Shown piece after piece: positions 2,480 to 33,056 of a DNA stretch of 56,403 bases (its first letter is position 1; every line of letters begins with the position of its first letter). Origin of the DNA: an uncultured Arenicella sp. (GTDB lineage: Bacteria; Pseudomonadota; Gammaproteobacteria; Arenicellales; Arenicellaceae); NCBI GenBank assembly GCA_937989675.1, contig CALKRK010000076.1:1-56403 (forward strand). Direction: 5' to 3'. The position numbers were made by a program, and so were the translations under genes. The notes below the pieces were generated by a model. It worked only from the letters and a program-made list of their open reading frames with translations, ran no database searches and had not been told where the DNA came from.

Positions 2480-4114
2480 TCACTCCTCCATCAATAACAT
2501 CAAGATCGGAGTCATATTCACATTTGTATCTAGAAGTTCTATTGCAAGATAATAGTTATCCGCTAATGGCGCCGGGATTATTGGTTCTGTTTGGCCATCG
2601 GGTACTAATTTAAAGTGCGTCGCTTTAATAAAATAGTCTCCAGGTGCCAACCTCTCGCTCTCTATTCTAGAGAAGCTGCCCGGCGATTCTCTATCTCGAT
2701 CGATGTTCAAATCTAATAAAGCCAAGTTAGCATCGTACAAAGATAGCTCTGTATCCACATTATTTCCCTCGAACGGCTTTGTCTCGATAAGAACGCGCGT
2801 TGATTTTCTTAACGTTAGCTTTACCCAATCTTCATCAGTTGAGGAGTCAAAACTATGTAACTGTAATACGTCACCCGAAATTCTTGTGGCTTGGGCGGCC
2901 GTATCATCCTCTTCGTATTCATCAACCAGACCTCTGAAGCCCGCGTTGGTGACACCGATCTTATATTTATCAATGCGCCCCAGAGAGCATTTGCCGCGTC
3001 GAGGGCTTTGATATGTAATGACCTCATCGCAAGCATCAATTGTGTAAACGTAACGCTTGCCACGAACCACGTCAAAATCGTTATAAATTGTGGCGTTTCC
3101 CTCAGGCTCAAAAGGCCCAATACAAGATTCAGGGTTTCCCTCTTCGCAGCGAATAATTTCATAACGAGGAGTTGAGTTTGGATTTGTAGTGGGCGACTCC
3201 CAACTTACTTCTACTCGGTCGTCAAACGCAGCCATACTTGCTTGAAAGTCAGCTTCGATAGCACCAACGGCTCGCCTAGAGCTAATACCACCACCGGGGA
3301 AACTTGGTCGTTGATCGTAACACCCTAAAGGCGTTAGTTGATGGCAGGAGTGAACAGAATAAGAATATCGTTTACCAATATCAAGGCCATCGGCTGCCGT
3401 AAATATACGCTGAAATACTCGCGTTCCAACATCACCCTCGGCAACGCTGATTTCATCTGGTGTTAAAGTGGCTACGTTATCGGTCAGTACTCCGGATGGG
3501 TCGTACTGGCGAATTACATACCAGCTAACCATGTTTACCCTTTGCTCCACATCATTGTTATCCAAGTAGATATCCCAGGGTACCTCCTGCCAGTTTAATG
3601 TAAGCTTGCCATCAGTATCATCAACTATCCTTACGTTATTCACTGCTGGCGGGACAACTTCTCTAGTTTGACTTAATACACAGTCTTCCATCACACCTGC
3701 AACAAATATACATGCACGAAAATAGTACTGCTCTCCAAGAATATCCGAGCGCTGCATATTGGCGTTCTGATCCTCAGGCAATGGCATGCTGAAACTGATG
3801 CTTGGTGATTCACTAGGTAGTGAAAACCCTCTGTCTGGATCAAACATATAGGTAGTCAAACTCGTATATGAACGCTCCATTTCCACGTCATCACCACCTG
3901 TAAAATCATTGTCGACCGAAGCCCACATTCGTACTGAAAAATCCGGGCTTGGGTCCGGGCCAATATTCCTCACCCAAAAAAAAGTGCTTTGATTACTCGA
4001 CGCTTGAATATTTTGACGACTATTAAACTGGATTTCTAAGTCGTATTGCGCGAAGCTTATTTGTGAAAATAAGGGGCCAACAAAAAAGATTAGGTAACAA
4101 ATTATTTTTTTCAT
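2480..4114 (-). CDS. Secreted protein with CARDB/FN3-like domains and a C-terminal PPC-like (bacterial pre-peptidase C-terminal) domain
   Basis: Signal peptide MKKIICYLIFFVGPLFSQISFAQ; DEYEEDDTAAQATRI...DEDWVKLTL...LSLYDANLALL...APGDYFIKA is PPC-domain-like. Confidence 0.7.
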   Translation of the reverse strand: MKKIICYLIFFVGPLFSQISFAQYDLEIQFNSRQNIQASSNQSTFFWVRNIGPDPSPDFSVRMWASVDNDFTGGDDVEMERSYTSLTTYMFDPDRGFSLPSESPSISFSMPLPEDQNANMQRSDILGEQYYFRACIFVAGVMEDCVLSQTREVVPPAVNNVRIVDDTDGKLTLNWQEVPWDIYLDNNDVEQRVNMVSWYVIRQYDPSGVLTDNVATLTPDEISVAEGDVGTRVFQRIFTAADGLDIGKRYSYSVHSCHQLTPLGCYDQRPSFPGGGISSRRAVGAIEADFQASMAAFDDRVEVSWESPTTNPNSTPRYEIIRCEEGNPESCIGPFEPEGNATIYNDFDVVRGKRYVYTIDACDEVITYQSPRRGKCSLGRIDKYKIGVTNAGFRGLVDEYEEDDTAAQATRISGDVLQLHSFDSSTDEDWVKLTLRKSTRVLIETKPFEGNNVDTELSLYDANLALLDLNIDRDRESPGSFSRIESERLAPGDYFIKATHFKLVPDGQTEPIIPAPLADNYYLAIELLDTNVNMTPILMLLMEE

Positions 4115-4227: not shown

Positions 4228-6198
4228 TCAAAAATCTTTACGTGCACTCAGGGAATAGTAGACATGATCAAAATCACTAATCCCGATCGTCTTATTAATG
4301 CTTGCATTAAGACTTATTTGGCTCGGGAATAAAAAATTGGCCCCGAGTAACAAGTTTCCGTAATCGGAATCGAGTTTTTCTAATGGCACGCTAAATATTG
4401 TCGAACCCACGCCAGACGTTGTTAAACCACTTTGCCTAAAGTCGATCGAACTGGTATCCGCTAGAAATCGGCCGGTCAACGCTCTCGAACCATCTTCAAA
4501 TTCATGCACCCAACTTGCTTTAGCCTGTGGAATAAACACGCCCCAATTTAAGCTAAACGGCTTGGAGATACTAAAACTGACGTCCGACGTAAACGACTCC
4601 AAATTGTAGTCATCAATCTCTAACGCCAAGCCAAACCCAACCTCGTTAGTGTTAGTATTTTCAGAAAAGCGTTTTATATCCGTGTCTACGTAATTTAAAC
4701 GCGCTGACAAATCGAGATTCACGTAGTCTCCAAACGTGCGACTCACACCGACACTCAAGATCTTTTGATCAGAATCGATATTGCTCAACACTTGCTGATC
4801 AACATCTGTACTAAAAGCGGTGTAAGCCATACGACGAACATTCTCAAGATCTCCATCACCAAATCCAGCAATCACATCTAAATTCAAATTATTTGAAAAC
4901 GCTTTAGCCGCATACATAGTGAACGTTTTCGTTTGTATATCAAGAGAGCCTGTATTACCGGAGAATTCCGACTCTGTCTCACCAAACCCATACGCCATGC
5001 CAGCAACCGTTGAAGAGTTGACCATGTAATCTACTCCGATTGTCATTGACCTACTCCGATAACCAAAACCATTTGACAATTCGCTGACGCCCTTATCGCC
5101 ATCGCCAGTCGTACCAAGAACGAAGGCACCAAAACGACCAGAATCGTCATCACCAGCGGCTCCTCCATAACTCCTATCGGAAGGCTTATTGTCAGCAAGC
5201 AAGCCTTTGGCTGGGTGACTAGCGTCAGAGCTAGCAACGTCTTTGTCGTTTTGTCGAAGGGCCGGCAGTATCGCAGCCAATCTCCCTCCGATGTTGCCGA
5301 CCTGTATTGTGTTAAGAAACGCCAAAGATTGACCTATGTCGCTGTATTGTTTAGCCGCGATCTGCCCAAGCGCGTTTAACTGGTTAGCCCCTTCTTTTTC
5401 GCGATTTATATCAATGCAGCGCTCTACCAAATCAGTCTGCGCCAGGGTGAGATTGCTGCTGCCTCTCAAATCGGTACATAGCGAAGCGAGACTGGATGCA
5501 ACAGACGACTCCGCGGGGAGAGCCTGGACTTCTAATGGTTGATCAAATTCAAAGGGCGCATTTCGAGCCTCTTGCTCTAATCGCTCAAGCTCAGCTAATC
5601 GCCTCTCTTCCGCAAGCCTGCGCTCCTCCGCTTCTGCTTCTCTGCGAGCCTCTTCTCTCTCGCGGCGACGTCTCTCTTCTTCCTCTGCTTGTCGCCTCTC
5701 CTCTTCAGCTTGTCGCCTGGCTTCTTCTTCCGCCTGCAGTCTGGCTTCTTCTTCCGCCTGCAGTCTGGCCTCTTCCTCTGCTTGCAGTCTGGCTTCTTCC
5801 TCTGCTTGCTGCTGAGCCTCTATATCGGCAATTTCCGCCGCCGATAACTCAACTTCGCAGCGCACAAATACACTATTCGCACCGCGGTCTCCACCATCGA
5901 CAAATCGCCCGACTCGACGACACTCGACCGAAGCATCAGTAATTAACTGACGCCCTTCTACAGATTGGGATGGCCTGCCGGTAAAAGTGGATGTTAATGT
6001 AGCCTGATACTCGCAAATACGTAATGTGTTTGTCTGCTCTATTTCCATAAAACCGGTAGGGCAAGCTGTCATCGCTGACGCCTTGGTCGAAAAAAATAGA
6101 AAGCTCGCCAAACACGTCAGCAAGTAATAAATGGCACGGCGCTGCGCGCAACGTGATTGTTGCAGAGCCGAACAATCATAGATGTTCGAAGGGTTCAT
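4228..6198 (-). CDS. Autotransporter-like protein: signal peptide, charged EEARLQAE coiled coil, C-terminal beta-barrel
   Basis: Hydrophobic N-terminus, long E/R/A repeat, C-terminal ~280 aa of alternating beta strands (SMTIGVDYMVNSSTVAGMAYGFGETESEF...) ending in aromatic ...YSLSARKDF. The start may be the track M at 6243 or the internal M at 6198. Confidence 0.75.
   Translation of the reverse strand: MNPSNIYDCSALQQSRCAQRRAIYYLLTCLASFLFFSTKASAMTACPTGFMEIEQTNTLRICEYQATLTSTFTGRPSQSVEGRQLITDASVECRRVGRFVDGGDRGANSVFVRCEVELSAAEIADIEAQQQAEEEARLQAEEEARLQAEEEARLQAEEEARRQAEEERRQAEEEERRRREREEARREAEAEERRLAEERRLAELERLEQEARNAPFEFDQPLEVQALPAESSVASSLASLCTDLRGSSNLTLAQTDLVERCIDINREKEGANQLNALGQIAAKQYSDIGQSLAFLNTIQVGNIGGRLAAILPALRQNDKDVASSDASHPAKGLLADNKPSDRSYGGAAGDDDSGRFGAFVLGTTGDGDKGVSELSNGFGYRSRSMTIGVDYMVNSSTVAGMAYGFGETESEFSGNTGSLDIQTKTFTMYAAKAFSNNLNLDVIAGFGDGDLENVRRMAYTAFSTDVDQQVLSNIDSDQKILSVGVSRTFGDYVNLDLSARLNYVDTDIKRFSENTNTNEVGFGLALEIDDYNLESFTSDVSFSISKPFSLNWGVFIPQAKASWVHEFEDGSRALTGRFLADTSSIDFRQSGLTTSGVGSTIFSVPLEKLDSDYGNLLLGANFLFPSQISLNASINKTIGISDFDHVYYSLSARKDF
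5717..5812. repeat. Four tandem 24-bp coding repeat units (EEARLQAE coiled coil)
   Basis: ctggcttcttcttccgcctgcagt occurs twice exactly in tandem (5717 and 5741), followed by two diverged units. Confidence 0.85.
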
Positions 6199-6672
6199 GG
6201 TGGGGTCCCCGATGTCTGTCCGCTTACAGTGACCCAATTTCACTTCGACGAATCCATGCTAGTCTCAAGAGAGCCGTTCGCATGATTTAAATAGCCGTTT
6301 CTACCCAAACGACGGTTCTTTAATGAAAAAAATACTTGAACAAGCTACGTACAGTAGGGTGTGACGCAGCCCAAGCGTTAATCTCGTTATTGCTTGTTCG
6401 CTAAAACCGTAAACAATCGGTCATAGCCATATACATATTCTAGATTCCTTCAATCCGTTTACAAAACTGGCCCAATTTCCGTTTTGCAACACTATTGCTC
6501 ATACTCAGCCTTAAGGTTTAGTTGAGCTGCAACACCGCTACTACCCATAGCGGCATACCTGTTTCATCCTGACAATTCTCCCCAAGCAATGAGACGGCTC
6601 TCTTTCTGGGAATGGTTCAATTATAGATTACGTACCTTCAAGAATGCTAGCGAGTATCAGGTTTTTAAGTTA

Positions 6673-8655
6673 CTAATTATTAGTTTTCATAGACTTAGGC
6701 GCGAAGTAAAACTCGCCACCTTGATGCCCCCCTGCCGCCAAAGGCGCATAGCGCGGTACCTGCCTAACATTATCTTTTGTCGCTAACGCCACCGAATGCG
6801 CCACCTGAGTTGCTAAGGAATCAGCGTCCAATAGCCCATCATTTTCATTTAAGACACGCAACAAGGCATTAGCAAAGACCGAGTGTTCGCTGTTATCGAG
6901 CGAATCGACTACTGGTTGAACACCACCGGATGACAACGCGACACGCGTCATCAACTCAACATCATTGCTTAAACGCAGTGCCTTTTTCTCAGCCGTTAAG
7001 CCACTGCGTAAGGTAACGATTCCAGATCGCATCAACGAACCCGAATAGCAAGAATCGGCAATCACAATTACGTTGCGCGCAGTCATGGCACGAATCTGAT
7101 CAGTAATACTTGCATTAGAAACCCAACGGACCGCACTTTCCGTAGAACCATCTACAGGAACCCAGTAACCTTGATCGTTTTCAGGATCTACCAACCCATG
7201 GCCTGCGTAATAAACCAGCAAATTATCATTGCTGGTTAACGATTTCCGCATATCTTCCAATGCCGTTAGCATCGCATCACGATTGGCATTAAGCTCAAGG
7301 CGCACCTTAAAACCATATTTTTCTTCCAACACTCGTGCAACTTCCTTGGCGTCGTTAACCGCGGTATCGAGCGGCTCCCAACCCTTCCCAAAGTCGTAAT
7401 CATTATTTCCGATGACAAGGGCGTGGTAATCCCCAAACTTAAAATTGGAACGGGTTAAAGCTCCAGAACCGCGCAACACGATATCAATATCGTCTGATGG
7501 TTTTATCAGTAATCGATGAGCAGTAAGCTCGCCACTAAGGTCAAGCACTTCAAGGTGAAGCTCCAAAACCTCACGCCCCACATCCAATGATTTTAAAAAC
7601 AAACCGTTGGCATCTAGCTCATAGCCTTCGCCATTAATCGTGAACGACTCAACCTTAGAAAAATTCTGGATCGCCCCAACAACATTAACAATTGAACCGG
7701 CTGGTACAGTCGTAGAACTGGTTCCATCAGTGGTTTGAAATTCAGGCCATTTTAGCGCAACGCTCGGAGTACCCGACGGCGTTAACGAAGCAATTTTTTG
7801 CTGCGCTTTTTGCAGTTCACTTTCAGCACCAGCTAGGCGCTCTTCGAGCAAAGAACTAAAACCATTTTCACTTTGCAGCTCTTTTTGTTTCTTTGCGAGC
7901 GTCTTTTCCAACGCCGCTTTTGCGTCATTCACCGCTGAATCTAACGCTTTCTTGAGTTCAACAATCTCTCTCTTGAGATTCAATACCGACTGTCGAGAGC
8001 GCTGTAAATCTGACTGCAATACTTCAGATTGACGCAGCGCTGAATCCGCTTTTCTTCTTTGAACTTCCAATTCTGCTTGAAGCTCTTCTATGCGCAACTG
8101 ATCTTGTTTCTGAATATTCTCGAATACCGACGCATACGCAATTTCATCTTCATCCAGACCCGATGCTTGTCGATAGAGGTTCATCGCTTGAACCAAATCT
8201 TTGTCAACTCCCAGACCTAATTCATATAAGCGGCCGAGGCTCATCTTAGCTGGACTGTATTCTTGTCTAATAGCCCGCTCATACCACATCACCGCCATTT
8301 TGTAGTCTGGCGTCTGCCCTAGCCCTTTCTCAAATATCTCACCAACAAAATACTGAGCTTTAGCATCACCTTGTAGTGCGGCCTCCTGCCAAACATTAAG
8401 AGATGAAGCCATATTAGCTCTGTCAAATTTGACGTAATCACCACCCTTAATCTCGCATTCATTAGCCGACGTTTTTGCTGGCCGCTTGCGACTCAGATAA
8501 GTACGATTAATACCTAGTTGACGGACTTTTCCCGGCAACAAACAATCAACAATCGCGGTTTGTTCAGCGGTAAGCGTCGCCGCTTTTGCACTCACGATGT
8601 TCATCGTAAGAACCAGCAACGAAGCCGCACTAACTAAGAGAACACCGGTTCGCAT
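6673..8655 (-). CDS. Secreted caspase-family (peptidase C14) protein with N-terminal SEL1-like repeats and a coiled coil
   Basis: Catalytic His motif LLVYYAGHGLV and Cys motif VIVIADSCYSGS; SEL1-like KAQYFVGEIFEKGLGQTPDYKMAVMWYERAIRQEYSPAKMSLGRLYELGLGV; N-terminal signal sequence. Confidence 0.9.
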   Translation of the reverse strand: MRTGVLLVSAASLLVLTMNIVSAKAATLTAEQTAIVDCLLPGKVRQLGINRTYLSRKRPAKTSANECEIKGGDYVKFDRANMASSLNVWQEAALQGDAKAQYFVGEIFEKGLGQTPDYKMAVMWYERAIRQEYSPAKMSLGRLYELGLGVDKDLVQAMNLYRQASGLDEDEIAYASVFENIQKQDQLRIEELQAELEVQRRKADSALRQSEVLQSDLQRSRQSVLNLKREIVELKKALDSAVNDAKAALEKTLAKKQKELQSENGFSSLLEERLAGAESELQKAQQKIASLTPSGTPSVALKWPEFQTTDGTSSTTVPAGSIVNVVGAIQNFSKVESFTINGEGYELDANGLFLKSLDVGREVLELHLEVLDLSGELTAHRLLIKPSDDIDIVLRGSGALTRSNFKFGDYHALVIGNNDYDFGKGWEPLDTAVNDAKEVARVLEEKYGFKVRLELNANRDAMLTALEDMRKSLTSNDNLLVYYAGHGLVDPENDQGYWVPVDGSTESAVRWVSNASITDQIRAMTARNVIVIADSCYSGSLMRSGIVTLRSGLTAEKKALRLSNDVELMTRVALSSGGVQPVVDSLDNSEHSVFANALLRVLNENDGLLDADSLATQVAHSVALATKDNVRQVPRYAPLAAGGHQGGEFYFAPKSMKTNN

Positions 8656-8693
8656 TTTATTAAGTATTAGGAACGGTAAACGTAAATTCCAAG

Positions 8694-9230
8694 TTACTGC
8701 TGAGCAGCAACCATGGTGGTGATTTCAACACGCCGATTTTCACCAGAGTTTGGTTTGGACGGATCGAGTAATTGCTCTTCACCATAGCCCGCTAACTGCA
8801 ATCTTGCTGGATCAACACCAAAGTTATCGTAAAGGTACTGGCCAACATTGACAGCCCGTTTACCAGAGAGTGCATTATTGTAGTCTTCATGCCCCACTGC
8901 GTCGGTATGCCCCGCTATCTCAAAACTGTAGTTAATCAACTGCTCACTCATTAGTGCTTCACCCAACGGGTTTAACTTAGCTTTGATTTCCTCAGTTAAG
9001 GCATAGGAATCAAACGCGAAATTAACACGCATAGAAATACTTGGAGGGGCTGCTGGAGCCTGATTTTCCTGGCCATTGAGCTTAATTCCACGAAGCTTAA
9101 TTTTAGGTTTTGGTTTCAAGCCATTAATGAATTCTTCTTTAGTGGTGAATTCGCTGTTCTCACTGGCCGCATAACTCAACGTGGTTACAGCCATTAAAAG
9201 CAACGTAGATAGTTTTATAAGCGATCTCAT
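8694..9230 (-). CDS. OmpA-family (peptidoglycan-associating) protein
   Basis: FDSYALTEEIKAKLNPLGEAL...FEIAGHTDAVGHEDYNNALSGKRAVNVGQYL...QLAGYGEEQLLDPSKPNSGENRRVEI. Start moved to MRSLIKLSTLLLMAVTTLSYA (9230), which gives a signal peptide. Confidence 0.92.
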   Translation of the reverse strand: MRSLIKLSTLLLMAVTTLSYAASENSEFTTKEEFINGLKPKPKIKLRGIKLNGQENQAPAAPPSISMRVNFAFDSYALTEEIKAKLNPLGEALMSEQLINYSFEIAGHTDAVGHEDYNNALSGKRAVNVGQYLYDNFGVDPARLQLAGYGEEQLLDPSKPNSGENRRVEITTMVAAQQ

Positions 9231-9231
9231 A

Positions 9232-9588
9232 TCATCCTCCAATATATAAGCAAAAGGTGTCAGAATAGTTAAAGGCATACGCCTTTTTCGAGTTTTTATT
9301 AGTCAAAATTGGAGTTTGTGCCACAGCGAGGCTCCAATCATGCTCAGCTACAATCAAAATGCCATCCTGCCAACATCTCAAAGTCTTATCTGCGCTGCGA
9401 ACGCTCTTTTTGTCGAACGTAAAAGCGTCAGAACGCTTGGCCTCCGAAACACTGGTGCCAGCTGATTTCGGCGCGGCGGCCGCCCCGGTAATAAGAACAG
9501 TAGAATCCTGCTTTAAGTCTGCTTGTGCGACACACGGTATACCAAGTAATAAACAGATTAGCAATGAAGTTCGTTGGAAATGGTTCAT
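9232..9588 (-). CDS. Small secreted hypothetical protein, two Cys in the mature part
   Basis: Start moved to MNHFQRTSLLICLLLGIPCVAQA (9588), a signal peptide. Tightly packed between neighbouring genes in the same direction. Confidence 0.65.
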   Translation of the reverse strand: MNHFQRTSLLICLLLGIPCVAQADLKQDSTVLITGAAAAPKSAGTSVSEAKRSDAFTFDKKSVRSADKTLRCWQDGILIVAEHDWSLAVAQTPILTNKNSKKAYAFNYSDTFCLYIGG

Positions 9589-9610
9589 GGTAGTCTCTAA
9601 TTTTAATGTA

Positions 9611-11203
9611 TTACTGAGTGGCGATTTCAAATGAAGCCACACCGAAACGGTTGTTCGTTGCTTTTGCGTACGCCTGTTTTATAACATCCAAGGAATACAC
9701 TGGCAGTTGTTCCAAATCGGGAACTTGTAATTCTGCAGGGAAATCAGTGTCAACGTATTTGGTAGCAAGAAAACAGTGAAGCTGCTCCATCGCCACATCA
9801 GCAACAAATGAGTACTGGTTGGTATCTGGCAGAACCAAACCACCATTCGACGATATAAAGCCATCAGCTGAAAAGCGGTTTGGAAACACTCGAACAAATG
9901 CATCTTCTTGTTGGAAATAACAGTTCAGATAGCCATCGGTATTGGTACTGATATTGACAAAGACTTCCTCGCCAACGCTAAAACTGTCGCCCCCCGCTAA
10001 TGACGCCAATTCAATTTCGATTGGCTTAACGGCCGGGGCTTCATTTACACCTTTTTTCTTTTTCTTCTTTTTATTAAGCTCGGCTTTTAGTTCGAGCTTA
10101 CGCTTGGTGTAAGCCAGTTCATGACCCTTTTCTGAAACTGGCGTGCGGTGCAGAAACGCCGTGTAAAAGTCTAGGTCAATCGCGGCCACTTCAGGTAAAC
10201 CAAGCCGGCGTTTGTATTCAAGAACCGCTAAAAGGTAATCCTCGGTGATATCTTCATCAATTGCACCGTTATAGTAACCACGCGCGGTGAGTTGCAACTT
10301 AAGTGTTCGATGTAACGTACCCATGCTTGAAAGCTGATAGAACCAATCGGAAATCTCTTGTTTAATTTCAGCGTGCTCAGGATCCATGCCTAAGCAATTC
10401 CAATAAGGTAGCTTTGTGAGCTTACCTACTAGCTCGATGGTAGAAAGCTCGACAAGAGCTCTTAATGCCTGGCCAACGGCATCTTTCGAACTACTCGAAA
10501 AGCTGTAGCTCATACCCGTTTTACTTATACCACCATCATAACTGGTAGACGAGCCACGAGTGAAAAGCTCAATTGAGTTCTTAGTAGTGACTCCCGGCAC
10601 CACTGACATGTTATGAGTCGTGATCACGCCCAAATCAATGGTCATGAAGGTCACCGAGCTGCTTGCAGACCTGCCTCCACCGCCGCCCACTGAAGACCCA
10701 TCATTGGTACCGGCTAGCTCAGCTGAAATATCGGCTTGTTTGCGGTAAAGACCATCATCGTATTGGGAGATTGAACCAATCATGTCAAACGGAGGTATGT
10801 CCTCATAAATACCTTTCTTACCAGCCTCGTTAATCAACGAAATTAAGTTGCCTGTGTCTTGCCCGTAGTTGACCAAACGAATCGCTCCACTGCGTTTAGT
10901 CATTTCAGAAATAGTGGAAATTATCATCTGGCGCGTGCCGGCATCCACTTTCTTAGTTTTATCCTTTACCTCTTCAAGCAACATAGCGTAATCAAAACGG
11001 CCAATCCCGAAAGATAAGAATAAATTATCCATGCAACGCAAGCTGTCTCGAAAGTCCGTCGTGTTCTTATGTGGCAATTGATCTGGGCCATTTCGTAACT
11101 GAGCGGCACGCTGCTCCACCCCATTATGTACGCCTGTGGTTATACAGCCAGTCGCAAACGCTGAAATAGCGAAAACGATCAATGTTTTTAGCAAGCGGTT
11201 CAT
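9611..11203 (-). CDS. Outer-membrane lipoprotein: CsgG/HfaB-like N-terminal region, peptidoglycan-binding-like domain, Lys-rich linker, DUF4384-like C-terminus
   Basis: Start moved to MNRLLKTLIVFAISAFATGC (lipobox). CsgG-like layout IYEDIPPFDMIGSISQYD...FMTIDLGVITTHNMSVVPGVTTKNSIEL...VGQALRALVELSTIELVGKLTKLPYW. PG-binding-like LTARGYYNGAIDEDITEDYLLAVLEYKRRLGL. DUF4384-like FSVGEEVFVNISTNTDGYLNCYFQQEDAFVRVFPNRF. Confidence 0.7.
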   Translation of the reverse strand: MNRLLKTLIVFAISAFATGCITTGVHNGVEQRAAQLRNGPDQLPHKNTTDFRDSLRCMDNLFLSFGIGRFDYAMLLEEVKDKTKKVDAGTRQMIISTISEMTKRSGAIRLVNYGQDTGNLISLINEAGKKGIYEDIPPFDMIGSISQYDDGLYRKQADISAELAGTNDGSSVGGGGGRSASSSVTFMTIDLGVITTHNMSVVPGVTTKNSIELFTRGSSTSYDGGISKTGMSYSFSSSSKDAVGQALRALVELSTIELVGKLTKLPYWNCLGMDPEHAEIKQEISDWFYQLSSMGTLHRTLKLQLTARGYYNGAIDEDITEDYLLAVLEYKRRLGLPEVAAIDLDFYTAFLHRTPVSEKGHELAYTKRKLELKAELNKKKKKKKGVNEAPAVKPIEIELASLAGGDSFSVGEEVFVNISTNTDGYLNCYFQQEDAFVRVFPNRFSADGFISSNGGLVLPDTNQYSFVADVAMEQLHCFLATKYVDTDFPAELQVPDLEQLPVYSLDVIKQAYAKATNNRFGVASFEIATQ

Positions 11204-11216
11204 TATCTGCTCTCGT

Positions 11217-11543
11217 CTAACAACGGTTCCCAGCATTAATAACATCGCCAATCACGATCGTTTGCTGTTCGATGTTACCAAAGGTTGGGCGTCGATTAGT
11301 TTCCAAGTTACCGATATCGACTGAACCACATTCGGATTCGGATTGCCCAAGATTTCGTTCCTCAAGATCAATGTAGTCATCGATGCCTTCATGCTGCATT
11401 TGACGCGACTGTGACTTGATACGCGAGATTTTCAGATTAACTTCATCTGACAACGCCAGCTCACCAGCTTGGCCTAACGAACAGAACAAACCGCAAGAAA
11501 TGGCTAGAAGAGCAAGTTTGGTATTTAAAGTAGGACGTTTCAT
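11217..11543 (-). CDS. Small secreted protein with two Cys (CGSVDIGN...GDVINAGNRC); possible HfaA-like accessory or minor subunit
   Basis: Signal peptide MKRPTLNTKLALLAISCGLFCSLGQA; C-terminal ECGSVDIGNLETNRRPTFGNIEQQTIVIGDVINAGNRC; 14 bp upstream of the lipoprotein start. Confidence 0.65.
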   Translation of the reverse strand: MKRPTLNTKLALLAISCGLFCSLGQAGELALSDEVNLKISRIKSQSRQMQHEGIDDYIDLEERNLGQSESECGSVDIGNLETNRRPTFGNIEQQTIVIGDVINAGNRC

Positions 11544-11675
11544 CGGAATTGTAAAAATGTGTTTCGTTCAATAGATATAACGTTCAGTTAGCGGAAAAGT
11601 TTCCTTTCTTTCAGACTATTTTCACTTCACTTGATGAGCGCCCTCCTTAGCGCTCTCAAATACCCAGATCAGCTA

Positions 11676-14600
11676 CTATTTAATACTCTCGATATTAAGT
11701 CTAGCCTTGCCTTTATAGCCTTTTGCTTTGTTAGTGATGCTGCCATCTACCGTGGTCTCACGCGTAAAATCACCAGTTACTGTCGAATTGATGATGGACC
11801 CGATATCAACATAGGCTTTGCTCTTGTAACCCCTAGCCTGATTACTAATAGAGCCATTAACCGTTGTCTTAACATCCACATTTCCAACGTTCGCGCCACT
11901 CAAAGCATTCACATTGACGTACGCCTTAGTTTTGTAGCCCTTCGATCTATTCGCAATACCACCATTCACCTGGGTATTCATAACAACATTACCGGAAGCC
12001 TTTGAACTGACCATCGAGCCCACATTGACATGTGCCTTGGTCTTAAAGCCACTAGCCCGGTTGTTGATGCCGCCTTTAACGACGGTATTCAGGTTGGCAT
12101 TGCCGCCGACAGAAGAATTGACAATTGAGCCGACGTCAACACGAGCACTGGTTTTGAAACCGCCAGACCGATTACTAATGTCACCATCAACACGCGTATT
12201 CAAAACTAGCCCACCCCCAATATTTGAGCCAGAAACGGAACCTGCGTTCACAACGGCCTTGGTTTTAAAGCCACCCGCCTTGTTGCTAACACCCTTTAAG
12301 CTAGTGTTGATCGACGCGTCTCCACCAAGTGTAGATCCACTTACTGAACCGACATTAGCGTAAGCTTTGTTGAACACACCGGAAGAACGGTTGTTTACGT
12401 TGCCTTTGACGGCAGTCTTCAACTCAATATCACCTTTAGCCGTTGAACCGACCACAGACCCAACGTTTGTTACCGCTTTGGTTTTTAGCCCCGACGCTTT
12501 CGAACTTACAGAGCCATTAATGGTGGTATCAATACTGGCTTTACCTTTGACGGTTGAACCATCGATTGCTGCCACGTTCAATTCAGACTTATTAAGTAGA
12601 CCACTGGCCTTATTACTGATGCTGCCTTTAGCATTCAACTTAACATCAACATCGCCGGTTCGGCTGCCGTCGATCTGTGCAATGTTCGCTTGTGCCTTGC
12701 TCAACAAGCCGCTTGCACTGTTATTCACGTCACCCTGAAGTGTGGCATCCAATACAACATCGCCATCGATGCGCGACTTGTTAATGCCTGCCACATTCAG
12801 TTCAGCTTTAGTAAACACACCAGCCGCTTTGTTGCTTATTCTGCCATTGGCGACCGTCGTCATTTTAGTATCACCGTTAACGCGAGAATTGGTCACTGAA
12901 GCTACATTTGACTTCGCCGAAGCACCTAATCCAGCGGCCAGGTTACGAACACCTTTGTTTATTTCGGTATTGATCTCAGTGTTGCCATTCATCGATGATT
13001 TCTCAATCGTCGCCACATCCATTTCAGCTTTTGATAACAAACCAGCCGCGGTGTTGCTGACATCCCCTTTCAGTGTGGTATCTATTTTAGTATCACCCTT
13101 CAAAGATGACTTCTTGATCGTAGACACGTTTGACTCAGCCAAGGCTAATAAACCTGCCGCTTTATTGGAAACCTTGCCATTAATATTAGTGGTAAGTTCA
13201 ACGTCACCTTGAAGGGTCGACTTTTTAATTGAGCCTACATTACTCTCAGCGAGCGTCAGCATACCGGCCGCTAAGTTGCTTACTTTACCTTTAACAACGG
13301 TATCCAACTTAGCGTTGCCGGTAATTGTCGACTTATGGATTGAACCTGTATTCGCATTGGCGATGGCGAATGCGCCACCAGCAATATTAGAAACAGAGCC
13401 ATCTATTTTAGTGTTAACCTCGGCGTCGCCGCCAAGCTTCGATTTTTTTATTGACCCCGTATTCGAAGTCGCCATCACGCCCACGCCGCCTGCGATATTC
13501 GTGACCGAACCATTGACCTCGGTGTTAATTACCGTTTTGCCTTCAGCACGCGAGTTCACTATTGAGCCGGTGTTCATGTCAGCAAGTGCGATAACGCCAC
13601 CCGCCACATTAACAATCTCGCCGTCGACTTTACTGTTTATCGTTAAGTCCTTTGTCTTCGCCTTATAGGCGGATCCAGCATTCGCTAAAGCAACAGAGCC
13701 AACACCCGCCCCTACATTCACAATACCGCCATCTACCTTACTGGAGATATTCAAATCACCATTTACCTTTGAGCTCTCTGCACCACCTGAATTCAATTTG
13801 GCAACGGCGCCAATGCCACCAGCAACATTAACCGTCGCGCCATTCACATCTGAAACGATATTGGCATTGCCTTTAACCTTCGTATTCGCGATGGCAGCCG
13901 TATTCAAAATTGCCGCTGAACCGATACCACCAGCAACATTAACTGTGGCGCCCTTTACTTTACTACTGACGTTAAGGTCGCCATCAACTTTGGATTTAAA
14001 TACACCGCCTGAATTTGCAATCGCAACGGCGCCAATCCCTCCAGCCACATTAGCCGTCGCGCCAACCACCTCTGACTTGATTTTAGCGTTGCCTTTAACT
14101 TTGCTATTAGCAATCCCGCCAACATTAGCAATCGCCACTGTACCGATACCGCCTGCCACGTTCGCCGTTGCGCCTACGACCTTGTTGTCAATTTCCAAGT
14201 CACCGCCAACCTTAGCTTCATGTGCCGCACCGGAATTAACGATTGCCACCGCACCGACACCACCAGCAACGTTAGCCACCGCACCTTTAATCGAGCTTTT
14301 AACCTTAGCCGAGCCCCCCACATTGGTCTTATTCAAACCACCGGAGTTAGCAATCGCTAAAGTGCCTACACCGCCCGCGATATTAGCAACAGCGCCAACA
14401 ACTTTGCTATCGACAGTTACGTCCCCATCAACTTTTGCTTTACGCACCGTTCCTGAATTCATTACCGCTATCGCTAATTCGCCAGCAGCAACGTTAGCGA
14501 CCGCGCCCTTCAGGTCACTTTTCAATTCGACATTTCCCTTAATATCTGATTTCACCACCGAAGCGGAGTTCAAGTCTGCGTAAGCCAGCATTCCTGCAGC

Positions 14601-16330
14601 CACATTCGCGGTCGCGCCCTGAACCTTATTATCAACTTTAACGTCTCCGCCAATATTCGATTTGACAATTGAACTCGAATTCGCCAACGCCACAGCCAAT
14701 TCACCAGCAGCTACATTCGCGGTGCCGCCGACAATATTGTTCTTAATTTGGGCATCGCCTTTCAGATTAGATTTTTTGATACTCGTGGAATTTAAATCCG
14801 CAACCGCAAGCATACCAGCGGCCACGTTAGCCGTTGCTCCCTTTAGCTTATTATCAATTCGAACATCGCCGTCCAACTTTGATTTTACGATGGAATCTGA
14901 GTTCACAGTCGCGATAGCAAGCTCACCTGCAGCAACATTCACCAAGCCGCCCACTACATCTGTATCGATTTTTGTTGTGCCATCAATCTCTGACTTAGCA
15001 ATTGATCCAAATTTAGTGTCTGCATAGGTAACCGTGCCAGCGGCGACGGTCACCACCCCACCTGTAACTTTGTTGTTTATCTGCGCTTCGCCTTTGACTT
15101 TGCTGTTCGCAATTGCACCAACTTTGGTGTTAGCAACACTCAGCTCTCCAGCAGCAACATTAGCAACACCACCGACAATATCGTTGTTAATCAGAGCTTT
15201 ACCATCAACTTTAGAACGACTAATGGTACCAACATTAACGTTCGCGGCTACTCCGGTGCCCGCAGCAACGTTGGCAACCCCACCGACGATTTTGTTTTTT
15301 ATGCTCGCATCACCTTTAACGTTAGAGCCAAGACTAATAGTGCCCACTTCCGTATTTGCGAGTACGCCTTCGCTAGCCGCAACCGTCACAACACCACCTT
15401 TGATATCGTTTTCTATAGCGGCATCGCCCGATACCTTCGACATGCTTACTGAGCCCACATTTGCATTTACGATAGAATAGTCTGCAACATTGACGGTAGC
15501 CACGCCCCCAACAATTTTGTTCTTAAGCGTGGTATCACCAGACACGTTTGAACCCATCGTAATTGAGCCTACTTCCGTGTTGGTTATCGAAAAATCCCCG
15601 GTTGAAACATTTGCTACACCACCAGTGATCTGATTATCAATGTCAACTGAGCCGCTCACTTTAGACAAATTTGTTACAGAGCCAACGACCGCATTACTGA
15701 TCGATTTATCACCTGTTGAGACGTTTACCACTCCGCCTTTGAGCGTATTGTTTACTTTCAGCTCACCTGACACACTTGCCCCATTGGTTACGCTGGCTAA
15801 CTCAGTATTGGTAATTGAGCTATCGCCGGTAGATACGTTGACCACGCCTCCCTCAATGGTGTTATTAAGCTCAGCCGAACCTGAACTTTTGACTTGAGCA
15901 CCATTCGTAACCGAACCGAGTTTCACTAAACTGCGTGACTTGTCGCCGGTGGCTATGTTAGCTGTACCACCCTTGATGTTGTTGTTGACCTTCAGCTCTC
16001 CATCCACTTTTGCCAAGGTGCTGATCGAACCGATTTCCGTGGTCACTTTTACTTTGTCCCCGGTCGCGACGTTAATCGCGCCACCAACAACATTATTATT
16101 GATCGTTGCTTTTCCGGCTACCGATGACTTGCCAGATACCGTTCCTAAACGTAATTTGCTGTCAGCTTTATCGCCAGTGACAATATTCGCCGCTCCGCCC
16201 TTGATATCATTATTCAAATTCGCTTCGCCGCTAATTTTCGAATTGCTTACAGCGCTAATCTCAGTCGCAGCTTTGGATTCCTCGCCAGTGGATAGCGTAA
16301 CGCTGCCACCTTTGAGTTCAGTATTTGCTT
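11676..16330. repeat. Coding tandem repeats, unit about 108-111 bp
   Basis: Translation shows in-register ~36-37-aa units; neighbouring units are more alike than distant ones (SVSTGD-type, then ANVAGGIG-type, then SNKAAGLL-type, then NRASGFKTKA-type). Confidence 0.85.
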
Positions 16331-16412
16331 CAAGCTCGCCGCTCACATCAGATTCCGCTGTAACTTGACTGGAGACGACCAGGGCGGCGATAAATATGGT
16401 TAGGATTTTCAT
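11676..16412 (-). CDS. Giant secreted repeat protein (1578 aa, about 40 copies of a ~37-aa solenoid-like repeat)
   Basis: Signal peptide MKILTIFIAALVVSSQVTAES. Repeats of the form [V/L]xGDxxINNxVxGGVxNVAxGxxxxAxxNxGSIxxSx over the whole mature length. I see no Cys or Trp. Confidence 0.9.
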   Translation of the reverse strand: MKILTIFIAALVVSSQVTAESDVSGELEANTELKGGSVTLSTGEESKAATEISAVSNSKISGEANLNNDIKGGAANIVTGDKADSKLRLGTVSGKSSVAGKATINNNVVGGAINVATGDKVKVTTEIGSISTLAKVDGELKVNNNIKGGTANIATGDKSRSLVKLGSVTNGAQVKSSGSAELNNTIEGGVVNVSTGDSSITNTELASVTNGASVSGELKVNNTLKGGVVNVSTGDKSISNAVVGSVTNLSKVSGSVDIDNQITGGVANVSTGDFSITNTEVGSITMGSNVSGDTTLKNKIVGGVATVNVADYSIVNANVGSVSMSKVSGDAAIENDIKGGVVTVAASEGVLANTEVGTISLGSNVKGDASIKNKIVGGVANVAAGTGVAANVNVGTISRSKVDGKALINNDIVGGVANVAAGELSVANTKVGAIANSKVKGEAQINNKVTGGVVTVAAGTVTYADTKFGSIAKSEIDGTTKIDTDVVGGLVNVAAGELAIATVNSDSIVKSKLDGDVRIDNKLKGATANVAAGMLAVADLNSTSIKKSNLKGDAQIKNNIVGGTANVAAGELAVALANSSSIVKSNIGGDVKVDNKVQGATANVAAGMLAYADLNSASVVKSDIKGNVELKSDLKGAVANVAAGELAIAVMNSGTVRKAKVDGDVTVDSKVVGAVANIAGGVGTLAIANSGGLNKTNVGGSAKVKSSIKGAVANVAGGVGAVAIVNSGAAHEAKVGGDLEIDNKVVGATANVAGGIGTVAIANVGGIANSKVKGNAKIKSEVVGATANVAGGIGAVAIANSGGVFKSKVDGDLNVSSKVKGATVNVAGGIGSAAILNTAAIANTKVKGNANIVSDVNGATVNVAGGIGAVAKLNSGGAESSKVNGDLNISSKVDGGIVNVGAGVGSVALANAGSAYKAKTKDLTINSKVDGEIVNVAGGVIALADMNTGSIVNSRAEGKTVINTEVNGSVTNIAGGVGVMATSNTGSIKKSKLGGDAEVNTKIDGSVSNIAGGAFAIANANTGSIHKSTITGNAKLDTVVKGKVSNLAAGMLTLAESNVGSIKKSTLQGDVELTTNINGKVSNKAAGLLALAESNVSTIKKSSLKGDTKIDTTLKGDVSNTAAGLLSKAEMDVATIEKSSMNGNTEINTEINKGVRNLAAGLGASAKSNVASVTNSRVNGDTKMTTVANGRISNKAAGVFTKAELNVAGINKSRIDGDVVLDATLQGDVNNSASGLLSKAQANIAQIDGSRTGDVDVKLNAKGSISNKASGLLNKSELNVAAIDGSTVKGKASIDTTINGSVSSKASGLKTKAVTNVGSVVGSTAKGDIELKTAVKGNVNNRSSGVFNKAYANVGSVSGSTLGGDASINTSLKGVSNKAGGFKTKAVVNAGSVSGSNIGGGLVLNTRVDGDISNRSGGFKTSARVDVGSIVNSSVGGNANLNTVVKGGINNRASGFKTKAHVNVGSMVSSKASGNVVMNTQVNGGIANRSKGYKTKAYVNVNALSGANVGNVDVKTTVNGSISNQARGYKSKAYVDIGSIINSTVTGDFTRETTVDGSITNKAKGYKGKARLNIESIK

Positions 16413-16475
16413 GGGTAGGGTTTCCTTGGTTTGGTCTTTTCACAATATTTAACGATTCAGAAACAATAAAGTTTC

Positions 16476-16507
16476 AAAAAAAACGCCACTTTTCGAAAAA
16501 AGTGGCG
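16476..16507 (-). terminator. Intrinsic terminator-like hairpin between the two solenoid-repeat genes
   Basis: Minus strand reads CGCCACTTTT-TTCG-AAAAGTGGCG followed by TTTTTTTT: a 10-bp perfect stem, 4-nt loop and T8 tract. Confidence 0.85.
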
Positions 16508-16535
16508 CCCTTAAAAACAGATGTGACTTGAACCG

Positions 16536-17411
16536 TTACTTAACTGATCCAATCGAAGAACTTGCAGAGCTCTCCTGGCCAGTCGCTAATGTCACTACAC
16601 CACCCAAAATATTGGTATCGATGTTGATTTCACCATCAGCCGTCGTGTTGCTAATCGTGCCGATTTCAGTAATCGCGCTTGATCCTTTACCTGTTGCCAA
16701 GCTAACCACACCAGCTTTGCCAATGACTGTATTAATCTTCGCATCGCCGTTGATCGTGCTATCAGTAATCGATGAGATATTAACAGTACTCGTTGACTCT
16801 TGGCCTGTCGCCAAGGCAACTACGCCACCCTTATCGATAACCGTCGTAGCTGAGATATTGCCCGTACCCTTTGTGCCTTTAAGAGATGAGAGTAGTAGTT
16901 CAGCCGTTGACTGCTTACCAGTTGCTAATGCAACCGCGCCGCCTTTGCCAATCACGGTGTTCAATTCCACTGAACCACCAGTCATTTCAGAACCAGTGAT
17001 CGTGCCAATGCCTACTTTTGCTGTCGCTTCTTGGCCGGTCGCCAGAGATACAACGCCGCCTTTTCCTATATCGGTATTAATCTTTACGTCGTTAACTTTT
17101 GAATCTTTAATCCGATTAACCGTTAGTTCAGACGTCGACTTATTACCGGTCGCTAAACTCACCAATCCGCCTTTACCAACTTTGAGCTGAAGATCAACAT
17201 CTCCATCCAACGTTGAGTTTTCAATAGTGTTTGCTGATAGCTCAGAAGTTGCCTCTTTACCAGTCGACAAACTCACTAAACCAGCCTTGCCTACTTCAGT
17301 TTTAATATTCAACTTTCCGTTCACTTCGCTTTCTGCAAAGCTGTTTGCAGACATACCGAGTGCGGCAATTAAAGAAAGAGCTAGGGTCGTTTTTTTGATG
17401 GTTAGGTTCAT
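16536..17411 (-). CDS. Secreted solenoid-repeat protein (291 aa, about 7 copies of the same ~37-aa repeat class)
   Basis: Signal peptide MNLTIKKTTLALSLIAALGMSANSFAES; repeats like DGDVDLQLKVGKGGLVSLATGNKSTSELTVNRIKDS; ends SSIGSVK. RBS-like ggag upstream of ATG. Confidence 0.9.
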   Translation of the reverse strand: MNLTIKKTTLALSLIAALGMSANSFAESEVNGKLNIKTEVGKAGLVSLSTGKEATSELSANTIENSTLDGDVDLQLKVGKGGLVSLATGNKSTSELTVNRIKDSKVNDVKINTDIGKGGVVSLATGQEATAKVGIGTITGSEMTGGSVELNTVIGKGGAVALATGKQSTAELLLSSLKGTKGTGNISATTVIDKGGVVALATGQESTSTVNISSITDSTINGDAKINTVIGKAGVVSLATGKGSSAITEIGTISNTTADGEINIDTNILGGVVTLATGQESSASSSIGSVK

Positions 17412-29244: not shown

Positions 29245-29835
29245 TTAAAAGTATTTATTTCCCGCACTCTCTTCCCAAAGAGACCTAAACCGCTCTCGAG
29301 CGCGATAAAGCACGCGGTCAAAATGCGCTGGCGTTAAGTCAAACTCCTGACATAACTCCTCCTTGTTATCTCCAATTAAATAGAAACGTTGCAAAATTTG
29401 CTTATCTCTTTCAACACTTAACTCATCCAGCAACCTTGATACACACTGGCTTAATTGTCCATTGGCAAAGGCCTTTTCTGGAGTCGTGCCAGAGTCTACA
29501 ATCTCTCCGGCTTGTTCCTCGCCAAGCATTTGATTTTTGGTTTGCTTTCGTTGCCGCATTATCAGCTGATTTTTTGCTATCTGGATAATAAATGCCGCAA
29601 GCTTTTGCTTATTTCGAAGTTGGTTATCGCGCACTTTCTGCAACACCAACACCCATGTTTCCTGGGCAATATCGCTTGCCAGAGAGTGATCACGAGCTCG
29701 GTTATATAGCATTACTCCGAGGCCACGTTGATATCTGAGCACCATTTCTCGCTCAGCCTCTTGGTCACCCTCAAGAATTCTGCCCACCAAATTTTCGGAG
29801 ACCTGAGCCTCAGTTAATGCATTTTGCGCTGTCAT
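29245..29835 (-). CDS. ECF-type RNA polymerase sigma factor
   Basis: EREMVLRYQRGLGVMLYNRARDHSLASDIAQETWVLVLQKVR...KLAAFIIQIAKNQLIMRQRK; C-terminal region 4-like helix-turn-helix. Confidence 0.88.
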   Translation of the reverse strand: MTAQNALTEAQVSENLVGRILEGDQEAEREMVLRYQRGLGVMLYNRARDHSLASDIAQETWVLVLQKVRDNQLRNKQKLAAFIIQIAKNQLIMRQRKQTKNQMLGEEQAGEIVDSGTTPEKAFANGQLSQCVSRLLDELSVERDKQILQRFYLIGDNKEELCQEFDLTPAHFDRVLYRARERFRSLWEESAGNKYF

Positions 29836-32800: not shown

Positions 32801-33056
32801 TGTCGGCAAGAATATTTACCGTCTTAATCGGCGTTTCGTCGTTCTCTGAATACAGAGACAAAATATAATCCGCCGACTTCTGCGATGCTGTAACAACAAC
32901 ATAATCATGCTCACCAAACTCCAACTTAACCTTTAGCGGCTCGGCCAACCCTACCCCTTCGATCACCTTGGGGTTGGCGTGGGCATTCGTGTTGACGAAC
33001 AAAGTTACAAAGGCAGTCAGTGCAAAACTGAGCCTTTTAAAGCTGATGCAAAGCAC
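29832..33056 (-). CDS. TPR-repeat CHAT-domain (clan CD) protease
   Basis: His motif SILHFATHGLL, Cys motif LVMLSACESSLGRGVAGEGLLSLSRAFIEGGASQVIGTLWQV; TPR-like helices before it; N-terminal signal sequence. Overlaps the sigma gene by 4 bp. Confidence 0.92.
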   Translation of the reverse strand: MLCISFKRLSFALTAFVTLFVNTNAHANPKVIEGVGLAEPLKVKLEFGEHDYVVVTASQKSADYILSLYSENDETPIKTVNILADKFFDELLLAKKSDCEVCFVTIEGANNIDRDSPYSLKVDYRTSGGNGILQRDIMFLQAISSASESRARSLNSGGDDAKKFRELAISELELVIDDTPQHKWAIHAKSVLMQLLSGTGEVKRTSKLASEIADAKGVGKSRYRVQALYQLGRFTSNIEEKRSLFLRGMNEAKEIGELVDYAKGANYYAISLTRESNFSEALKLFEEVSAIYASANRYFGLLNATGNLSWANQRAGQFPKAIAYGAQQKLLAEEYSFPVYVVWALYYTSIAYSKLGEGYIAEEFLDEAFNRFSAMTIADQERSSNLYGYLLRERAESSVRLGDFDAAESYSERMHNFYLSNKMEARLAASTFLRAEIAFAQNRPDVARKLFRNAIEYDRKNGRDRSAGRNNLMFAELELDQNRILEAVPLNIAALKSLSQTEDYVLLAQNFSLSVELLSSLGAYNEADQLATRVAKFISQRGLIPDQAKFLFRRAIVARGVGQNERALVYLSSARSIVEQALPKVKRRDLRRHYFALQKSVFALNVELLLEEARSNEALKLVESYKARTLNEVIRQVHNDSDVSLNVSKARDAIHDKILISAAKWYRNTESDGESLINTTRELSAELEKIETDLFDERNIVWQPSTGNQSLTLPKVTSSDQLLAYYFLGRAKSWLWLIGEKETTLHQLPARAEIEALVDEAKWHITSHPNLRDNSNAWLQRKAIIDLSAQVIEPIARRLERETIATLIIVPDGPLNGLPFSPLILDDWSTPLIGKVAITYAPSFGSILAIEDRANTRQYSADRKILVVADPISTVDVQETFVRLPNTAMEAKAIQKIAGSNVSLLVADRATKVQFLKKVAEPHSILHFATHGLLNSLEPALSGLMFSKVSENGINYWLLPEISSAKINADLVMLSACESSLGRGVAGEGLLSLSRAFIEGGASQVIGTLWQVQDKATANLTARFYSGLLDDSLVASEALRQAQIAVYSDKNNDWRDPYFWAGFQLQGGLENSKL

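What the first reader, a model, noticed from the sequence alone, without database searches (positions are those of the whole stretch)
6673..17411. Candidate undescribed surface-fibre/adhesin secretion system: two solenoid-repeat proteins plus CsgG-like lipoprotein, OmpA and caspase
Seen directly: seven consecutive leftward genes in tight order, all with signal or lipoprotein N-termini. They are repeat protein (291 aa), giant repeat protein (1578 aa), small 2-Cys protein, lipoprotein, small 2-Cys protein, OmpA, caspase. Established: in curli and Caulobacter Hfa loci, a CsgG-family OM lipoprotein exports repetitive fibre or anchor subunits aided by small periplasmic proteins. Inference: this locus follows the same logic with a different, much larger solenoid cargo, and adds peptidoglycan-anchoring parts and a periplasmic clan CD protease. 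I do not know of a described system with this composition.
Basis: partly seen in the sequence, partly recalled or inferred. Interest (0 to 1): 0.88.

Follow-up and report, generated by a model that had tools for sequence, protein, structure and literature searches.

The report
Curli-like export system, new solenoid cargo
A marine Arenicella-type bacterium carries a gene row that looks like a distant cousin of the curli fibre exporter: a CsgG-type outer-membrane pore that can also grip the cell wall, small helper proteins of no known family, and repeat proteins predicted to fold into long beta-solenoid rods; the same row recurs across many Proteobacteria and no description of it was found.

Summary
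In detail: seven leftward genes, all with Sec signal or lipoprotein N-termini, sit where reported; three start codons need trimming. The lipoprotein's N-terminal domain has the CsgG fold (Foldseek's 25 best PDB hits are all CsgG, E 3e-7; VIA Z 14.8; hhalign with E. coli CsgG E 2e-7) and keeps two amphipathic hairpins. It adds peptidoglycan-binding and DUF4384 domains. The 291-aa repeat protein is predicted as a beta-solenoid; the 1578-aa one has 41 repeats of about 37 aa and no Cys, Trp or Pro. About 80 further loci in Alpha-, Beta-, Gammaproteobacteria, Magnetococcia and Desulfobacterota keep parts of the cassette cargo, 2-Cys A, CsgG-like lipoprotein, 2-Cys B, OmpA, caspase. 2-Cys A was found in 8 of 398 sampled genomes, each time beside the lipoprotein. 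CsgE, CsgF and curlin repeats were not found. Elsewhere the cargo is mostly curlin-sized (median 125 aa), so the giant is lineage-specific. Best reading: a CsgG-family, wall-anchored exporter of beta-solenoid surface proteins, related to but distinct from curli and the Caulobacter Hfa anchor. Export and function are inferred, not shown.

The parts
16536..17411 (-). Repeat cargo 1, 291 aa, signal peptide plus 7 repeats of 37-39 aa; predicted beta-solenoid
   Evidence: (AF2 mean pLDDT 88.8)
11676..16412 (-). Repeat cargo 2, 1578 aa, signal peptide plus about 41 repeats of 37 aa; no Cys, Trp or Pro
11217..11543 (-). 2-Cys protein A, 108 aa, signal peptide; motif C-G-x-[IV]-x-I-G-N ... G-D-V-I-N ... 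C; no known family
9611..11203 (-). CsgG-like outer-membrane lipoprotein, 530 aa: lipobox, CsgG fold (about 44-273), PG-binding-like region (about 278-350), DUF4384 (408-469)
9232..9588 (-). 2-Cys protein B, 118 aa, signal peptide; motif C-W-Q-x-G ... C; no known family
8694..9230 (-). OmpA-type peptidoglycan-binding protein with signal peptide
   Evidence: PF00691 E 5.7e-22
6673..8655 (-). Secreted Sel1 + coiled coil + caspase (C14) protein, 660 aa, His486/Cys536 dyad kept
4228..6243 (-). Autotransporter-beta-domain protein; same place in the two nearest relatives and in two distant loci; membership of the system less certain
2480..4114 (-). Secreted Fn3-like/PPC-domain protein at the end of the row; homologues at the same place in one relative; membership uncertain

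Best explanation
The row encodes a CsgG-family outer-membrane export and surface-display system. Proposed mechanism: the repeat proteins cross the inner membrane by Sec and stay unfolded in the periplasm; the lipoprotein assembles into a CsgG-like oligomeric pore, each protomer giving two beta-hairpins to the barrel; the repeat proteins thread through the pore and fold outside into beta-solenoid rods (short subunits in most species, which may stack end to end; pre-joined long rods in Arenicella). The lipoprotein's peptidoglycan-binding domain and the OmpA protein tie the pore to the cell wall. The two disulfide-type small proteins act as dedicated periplasmic or surface helpers (the place that CsgE/CsgF/CsgB hold in curli), and the caspase cleaves cargo or clears stalled cargo in the periplasm. 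Shown: gene content, conservation, CsgG fold, predicted solenoid, intact catalytic dyad. Inferred: pore, export, folding outside, helper roles, caspase role.
For: AF2 model of the lipoprotein: CsgG is the top fold by a clear margin (Foldseek ranks 1-25, E 3.1e-07 to 8.9e-05; VIA Z 12.4-14.8 over 156-183 residues for CsgG entries, next family PelC at 10.5); hhalign to E. coli CsgG E 2.1e-7 over its whole length. Family-mean hydrophobicity alternates residue by residue at 157-164/172-178 and 220-227/229-237, as two amphipathic TM hairpins need. Lipobox with non-Asp +2 residue (Ile). PG_binding_1 in 32 of 44 and DUF4384 in 43 of 44 members. Cargo: predicted beta-solenoid with strand order to its last residues, no Cys/Trp/Pro, low in aromatics across 78 cargos (W 0, F 0.7, Y 0.35 percent), as suits threading unfolded. 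Conservation: of 52 loci with 2.5 kb on both sides, cargo 35, 2-Cys A 34, OmpA 36, caspase 32, against about 2-3 percent expected from 5-6 OmpA and 4 caspase genes in the window's own genome. Independent scan of 398 genomes: lipoprotein in 20, 2-Cys A in 8, all 8 within the 20 and adjacent (hypergeometric about 9e-12). Eleven further loci not used for the profiles (nearest lipoprotein 70 percent identical or less): 2-Cys A in 8, caspase in 8, OmpA in 6.
Against: No experiment. PF03783 score is under its curated cut-off for the window protein. AF2 loops at the hairpins are low confidence (157-179 under 50) and the oligomer was not modelled. Repeat-rich input favours solenoid predictions. The pore fold is shared with non-pore lipoproteins (PelC, LptE, HpaA: lower Z). 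2-Cys A or the caspase is missing from a good share of loci (18 of 52 and 20 of 52).
Confidence: 0.7

Rival explanations
1. Hfa-like anchor: the cargo is exported by the CsgG-like pore but its job is to hold an exopolysaccharide at the outer membrane, as HfaA/HfaD do for the Caulobacter holdfast, rather than to be a fibre or adhesin itself.
For: 30 of 44 lipoproteins match the HfaB model NF037935 at E <= 0.1, best 3e-7, more than match CsgG in Pfam (12 of 44). In Caulobacter, surface placement of HfaA and HfaD depends on HfaB (PMC6707917).
Against: HfaB has no PG-binding or DUF4384 part in its 264-position model; scores are far under the 300-bit cut-off; no polysaccharide synthesis genes recur beside the loci in the clustering of neighbours.
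Confidence: 0.15
2. Periplasmic or outer-membrane scaffold: lipoprotein, OmpA and solenoids form a wall-to-outer-membrane structure that stays inside the envelope; nothing is exported.
For: Two wall-binding parts; relatives of the fold such as PelC and LpoB-like proteins are not protein exporters (one LpoB hit).
Against: CsgG itself is the clear best fold match and both hairpins are kept with alternating polarity; a 41-repeat rod (about 20 nm at 0.48 nm per turn, general knowledge of beta-solenoids) is about as long as the whole periplasm.
Confidence: 0.1
3. The repeat proteins leave by another route (two-partner secretion or the autotransporter encoded at 4228-6243) and the lipoprotein does something else.
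For: The generic fold neighbours of the cargo model are two-partner adhesins HMW1 and EtpA (Z 14.9, 14.1); three relatives have a ShlB-type pore or pair close by.
Against: No TPS secretion domain and no TpsB in the window row; in L071 the ShlB partner has its own TPS-domain protein; cargo sits next to 2-Cys A and the lipoprotein in most loci without any TpsB.
Confidence: 0.05

Closest known systems
Curli (type VIII secretion; CsgA/B/C/E/F/G)
   Same: CsgG-fold outer-membrane lipoprotein with two hairpins; Sec-exported repeat subunits, mostly about 100-400 aa, predicted beta-solenoid; small accessory proteins in the same row. A subset of cargos carries one Q-x-G-x-x-N (the curlin arc motif) per repeat.
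   Different: Repeats of 31-41 aa instead of about 22; no PF07012, CsgE or CsgF; no detectable homology of cargo to CsgA/CsgB, of 2-Cys A to CsgF or of 2-Cys B to CsgE; lipoprotein about twice as long with PG-binding and DUF4384 domains; OmpA and caspase partners.
Caulobacter holdfast anchor HfaA/HfaB/HfaD
   Same: CsgG-family lipoprotein HfaB with two secreted partners; best named family model for the lipoproteins.
   Different: HfaB is CsgG-sized; partners not recognised here; no 2-Cys proteins, OmpA or caspase described in the paper read (PMC6707917).
Two-partner secretion adhesins (FHA/HMW1/EtpA)
   Same: Long secreted beta-helix proteins.
   Different: No TPS domain or TpsB pore in the window.

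Membership tests
Curli / type VIII secretion | CsgG-fold outer-membrane lipoprotein | tested here: met
   AF2 + Foldseek/VIA; hhalign with E. coli CsgG E 2.1e-7; Pfam score itself just below the cut-off
Curli / type VIII secretion | CsgA/CsgB subunits with curlin repeats | tested here: not met
   No PF07012 in the cargos or the window's genome (genome 80 percent complete); no hhalign match to CsgA/B; motif-level resemblance only in other loci
Curli / type VIII secretion | CsgF and CsgE accessory proteins | tested here: not met
   PF10614 and PF10627 absent from the window's genome, both found in the E. coli control (genome 80 percent complete); 2-Cys A unlike CsgF, 2-Cys B unlike CsgE. Some alphaproteobacterial curli systems also lack these (PMC3521004).
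Curli / type VIII secretion | Secretion through the pore and amyloid fibre on the surface | not testable with these tools
   needs the bench
Hfa holdfast anchor | HfaB-family lipoprotein | tested here: inconclusive
   NF037935 matches 30 of 44 members at E <= 0.1, best 3e-7, all far below its cut-off
Hfa holdfast anchor | HfaA and HfaD partners | tested here: inconclusive
   No NCBIfam match for the window's small or repeat proteins; direct comparison with HfaA/HfaD not run
Two-partner secretion | TPS domain on cargo and TpsB (ShlB/POTRA) pore | tested here: not met
   No PF05860, PF03865 or PF08479 among the nine proteins of the row
OmpA-domain peptidoglycan-binding proteins | PF00691 domain above cut-off | tested here: met
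   78.3 bits, cut-off 27.2
Caspase-like C14 peptidases | C14 fold family with His/Cys dyad | tested here: met
   PF00656 E 1.1e-27; H486 in YAGHG and C536 in DSCYSG invariant in seven aligned neighbours' proteins

The most novel reading that the evidence does not exclude
A separate branch of CsgG-type secretion, spread over Proteobacteria and into Desulfobacterota, that exports a family of 31-41-residue beta-solenoid repeat proteins with its own two disulfide-bonded helper families, carries its own peptidoglycan anchor and uses a periplasmic caspase; the cargo ranges from curlin-sized polymerising subunits to 40-repeat pre-joined rods.
Probability: 0.5. Interest if true: 0.85.

Novelty: new variant of a known kind. 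Interest (0 to 1): 0.72.

Why it matters
CsgG export is known from curli and Hfa only. A relative in about 5 percent of sampled phylum species (20 of 398), with other helpers, wall anchoring in the pore protein and cargos from 95 to 1629 aa, would show how one pore can serve different solenoid cargos, would offer new self-assembling protein rods and a new nanopore scaffold, and would give a bacterial caspase a concrete, testable setting outside cell death. It also makes the question of what CsgE/CsgF do testable by comparison with unrelated proteins in the same role.

Tried and rejected
The profile of the lipoprotein hits PDB chains by its PG-binding part first, CsgG only at E 0.1, so the sequence search alone does not establish CsgG. 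Cargo profile: no PDB sequence match; Foldseek E above 0.05, so only 'beta-solenoid' is claimed, no specific relative. 2-Cys A as a stray cargo repeat or cap: hhalign aligns only the signal peptides, rejected. Curli operon elsewhere in the genome: a stronger CsgG match lies at G000:C55, but with no lipobox at its reported start and no csg genes around it. Promoter scan: fewer sites than in shuffles, not used. Literature: eight searches; no paper pairs CsgG with DUF4384, and none retrieved describes this composition; only open-licence PMC papers were searchable, so a description elsewhere is possible.
Full report
WHAT IS THERE. The seven ORFs are real and lie on the minus strand at 6673-17411. 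With trimmed starts every product has a Sec signal peptide or, for the lipoprotein, a lipobox. Close relatives L015/L024 and L016/L029 (Arenicella MAGs; lipoprotein about 50 percent identical) keep the order repeat protein, repeat protein, 2-Cys A, lipoprotein, 2-Cys B, OmpA, caspase, autotransporter-barrel protein; L016 has one extra DUF2807 gene between OmpA and caspase. The system is patchy in its own genus: 3 of the 18 genomes assigned to it, the window's included.

THE LIPOPROTEIN. Pfam gives DUF4384 above its cut-off and CsgG just below it. An alignment of 44 relatives was modelled by AlphaFold2 (mean pLDDT 80, pTM 0.61). Foldseek's 25 best PDB hits are all CsgG. VIA-align gives Z 14.8, rmsd 4.7, 173 residues for 4uv2_P, and the next family, PelC, is 10.5. 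hhalign of the family with E. coli CsgG spans residues 3-254 of CsgG, E 2.1e-7. At the places of the two CsgG hairpins the family-mean hydrophobicity alternates residue by residue. C-terminal to this the family carries PG_binding_1 (32 of 44 members at E <= 0.1) and DUF4384 (43 of 44). In the window protein the PG-binding stretch is recognised only weakly, by related models (His-Xaa-Ser HxsA E 0.015).

THE CARGO. The 1578-aa protein is 41 tiled repeats with consensus xAxxNxGSIxxSKVxGDxxIxxxVxGGVxNVAxG, no Cys, Trp or Pro, net basic; the 291-aa protein has no aromatic residues at all. DNA copies are at most 72 percent alike, so the repeats are old and kept at protein level. The AF2 model of the 291-aa protein is a regular beta-solenoid, three main strands per 37-38-residue turn, pLDDT above 90 from residue 31 on and ordered to the last residue; caution: the alignment was made of repeat fragments and repetitive sequence favours such models. 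PDB neighbours are generic beta-helices. Across the other loci the cargo is mostly short (95-391 aa apart from Arenicella; median 125; period 31-41, most often 37), usually just upstream of 2-Cys A, and 23 of 87 called cargos end in a C..[IV]G..C cap-like pattern. The profile of short cargos matches the Arenicella cargos (hhalign E 9.6e-14, with signal peptides and low complexity included). In twelve cargos with four or more copies (Burkholderiales-type loci and the nearest Arenicella orthologue L024) the curlin arc motif Q-x-G-x-x-N occurs about once per repeat (93 in all 78 cargos, 13.8 expected from shuffles; examples). The window proteins have none; they show x-G-G-V-x-N in that place. Since hhalign finds no homology with CsgA or CsgB this is a lead, not a test.

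THE HELPERS. 2-Cys A forms a family of at least 58 members by HMM, with two Cys 24-42 residues apart in nearly all of those listed, motif C-G-x-[IV]-x-I-G-N ... G-D-V-I-N ... C, without Pfam, NCBIfam or PDB match. 2-Cys B has C-W-Q-x-G ... C in all 29 members. Neither resembles CsgF or CsgE. The OmpA protein and the secreted Sel1-caspase with an intact His/Cys dyad recur.

CONSERVATION. A genome-contig scan returned 75 loci. Of 52 loci with 2.5 kb or more on both sides, within 9 kb: cargo 35, 2-Cys A 34, OmpA 36, caspase 32, 2-Cys B 18. Background from the window's own genome is 5-6 OmpA and 4 C14 genes in 3.58 Mb, so about 2-3 percent would be expected in 18 kb. The profiles were trained on these loci, so two outside checks were made. 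(a) In 398 genomes of the phylum the lipoprotein profile hits 20 and the 2-Cys A profile 8; all 8 lie in the 20, on the same contig, 5 to about 640 bp away (p about 9e-12 if genomes were independent). (b) In 11 new loci with at most 70 percent lipoprotein identity: 2-Cys A in 8, caspase in 8, OmpA in 6, cargo in 5. A tree shows two main groups, one mostly Alphaproteobacteria/Magnetococcia with some Thiotrichales, one Gamma/Beta; the window sits with the Arenicella MAGs (100/99 support). Two rows titled Myxococcaceae/Hyphomicrobiales sit among Beta/Gamma rows, which may be transfer or misbinning.

WHAT IT IS NOT. Not curli by its defining parts: CsgE, CsgF and curlin repeats were not found in the genome, though the genome is 80 percent complete. 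Not two-partner secretion. Relation to Hfa remains open: HfaB is the best named model for many members, but HfaA/HfaD were not compared directly.

MECHANISM. Shown: gene content, order, conservation, CsgG fold, predicted solenoid, catalytic dyad. From established knowledge of CsgG (nonameric pore threading unfolded subunits) and of HfaB-dependent surface placement of HfaA/HfaD (PMC6707917), export of the cargo through the lipoprotein pore is the most economical reading. Wall attachment through PG_binding and OmpA, helper roles of the 2-Cys proteins and cargo processing or quality control by the caspase are inference. Estimated probability of the export reading: 0.7 for the full statement, about 0.85 if Hfa-type anchoring is counted as export too.

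NOVELTY. New variant of a known kind: CsgG-type export with a different cargo family, unrelated helpers and a wall-anchored pore protein. No description was found in eight literature searches, which cover open-licence PMC papers only.

Noticed in passing
L024:3419-4408; L032, L034, L035, L037-L040, L046, L053 cargos: Curlin-type Q-x-G-x-x-N motif about once per repeat in the cargos of these loci, absent from the two window cargos. May mark common descent with curlins or convergence on the same beta-arc.
   Followed up: partly
window 2480-4114, 40598-41602; L016:16894-18507: Secreted proteins end in similar tails (NMTPILMLLMEE, TITPILPIILDE, DITPIIQLLLSDEQ): possible C-terminal sorting tag in this lineage.
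   Followed up: no
L071:12706-16715; L037; L073: A ShlB-type pore plus TPS-domain protein stands directly downstream of the system in L071, with ShlB-like proteins near it in L037 and L073.
   Followed up: partly
L022, L023, L025, L026, L027, L029, L032, L034, L040: A DUF2807 (putative head GIN domain) secreted protein recurs on the same strand in nine loci; Pfam checked in three of them.
   Followed up: partly
L127-L130 (G593, G756, G565, G575): A variant row 2-Cys A, CsgG-like lipoprotein (584-598 aa), caspase without OmpA nearby, in one bacterial family.
   Followed up: no
G000:C55:17544-18128 and G000:C173:13586-18023: Own genome also has a stand-alone CsgG-domain protein (E 8e-48) with no csg genes around it, and a separate row of three large secreted genes, two with C14 caspase domains.
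   Followed up: partly
window 29245-33056: A sigma-factor-like gene (29245-29835) and a 1074-aa secreted protein form another leftward row in the same window; not examined.
   Followed up: no
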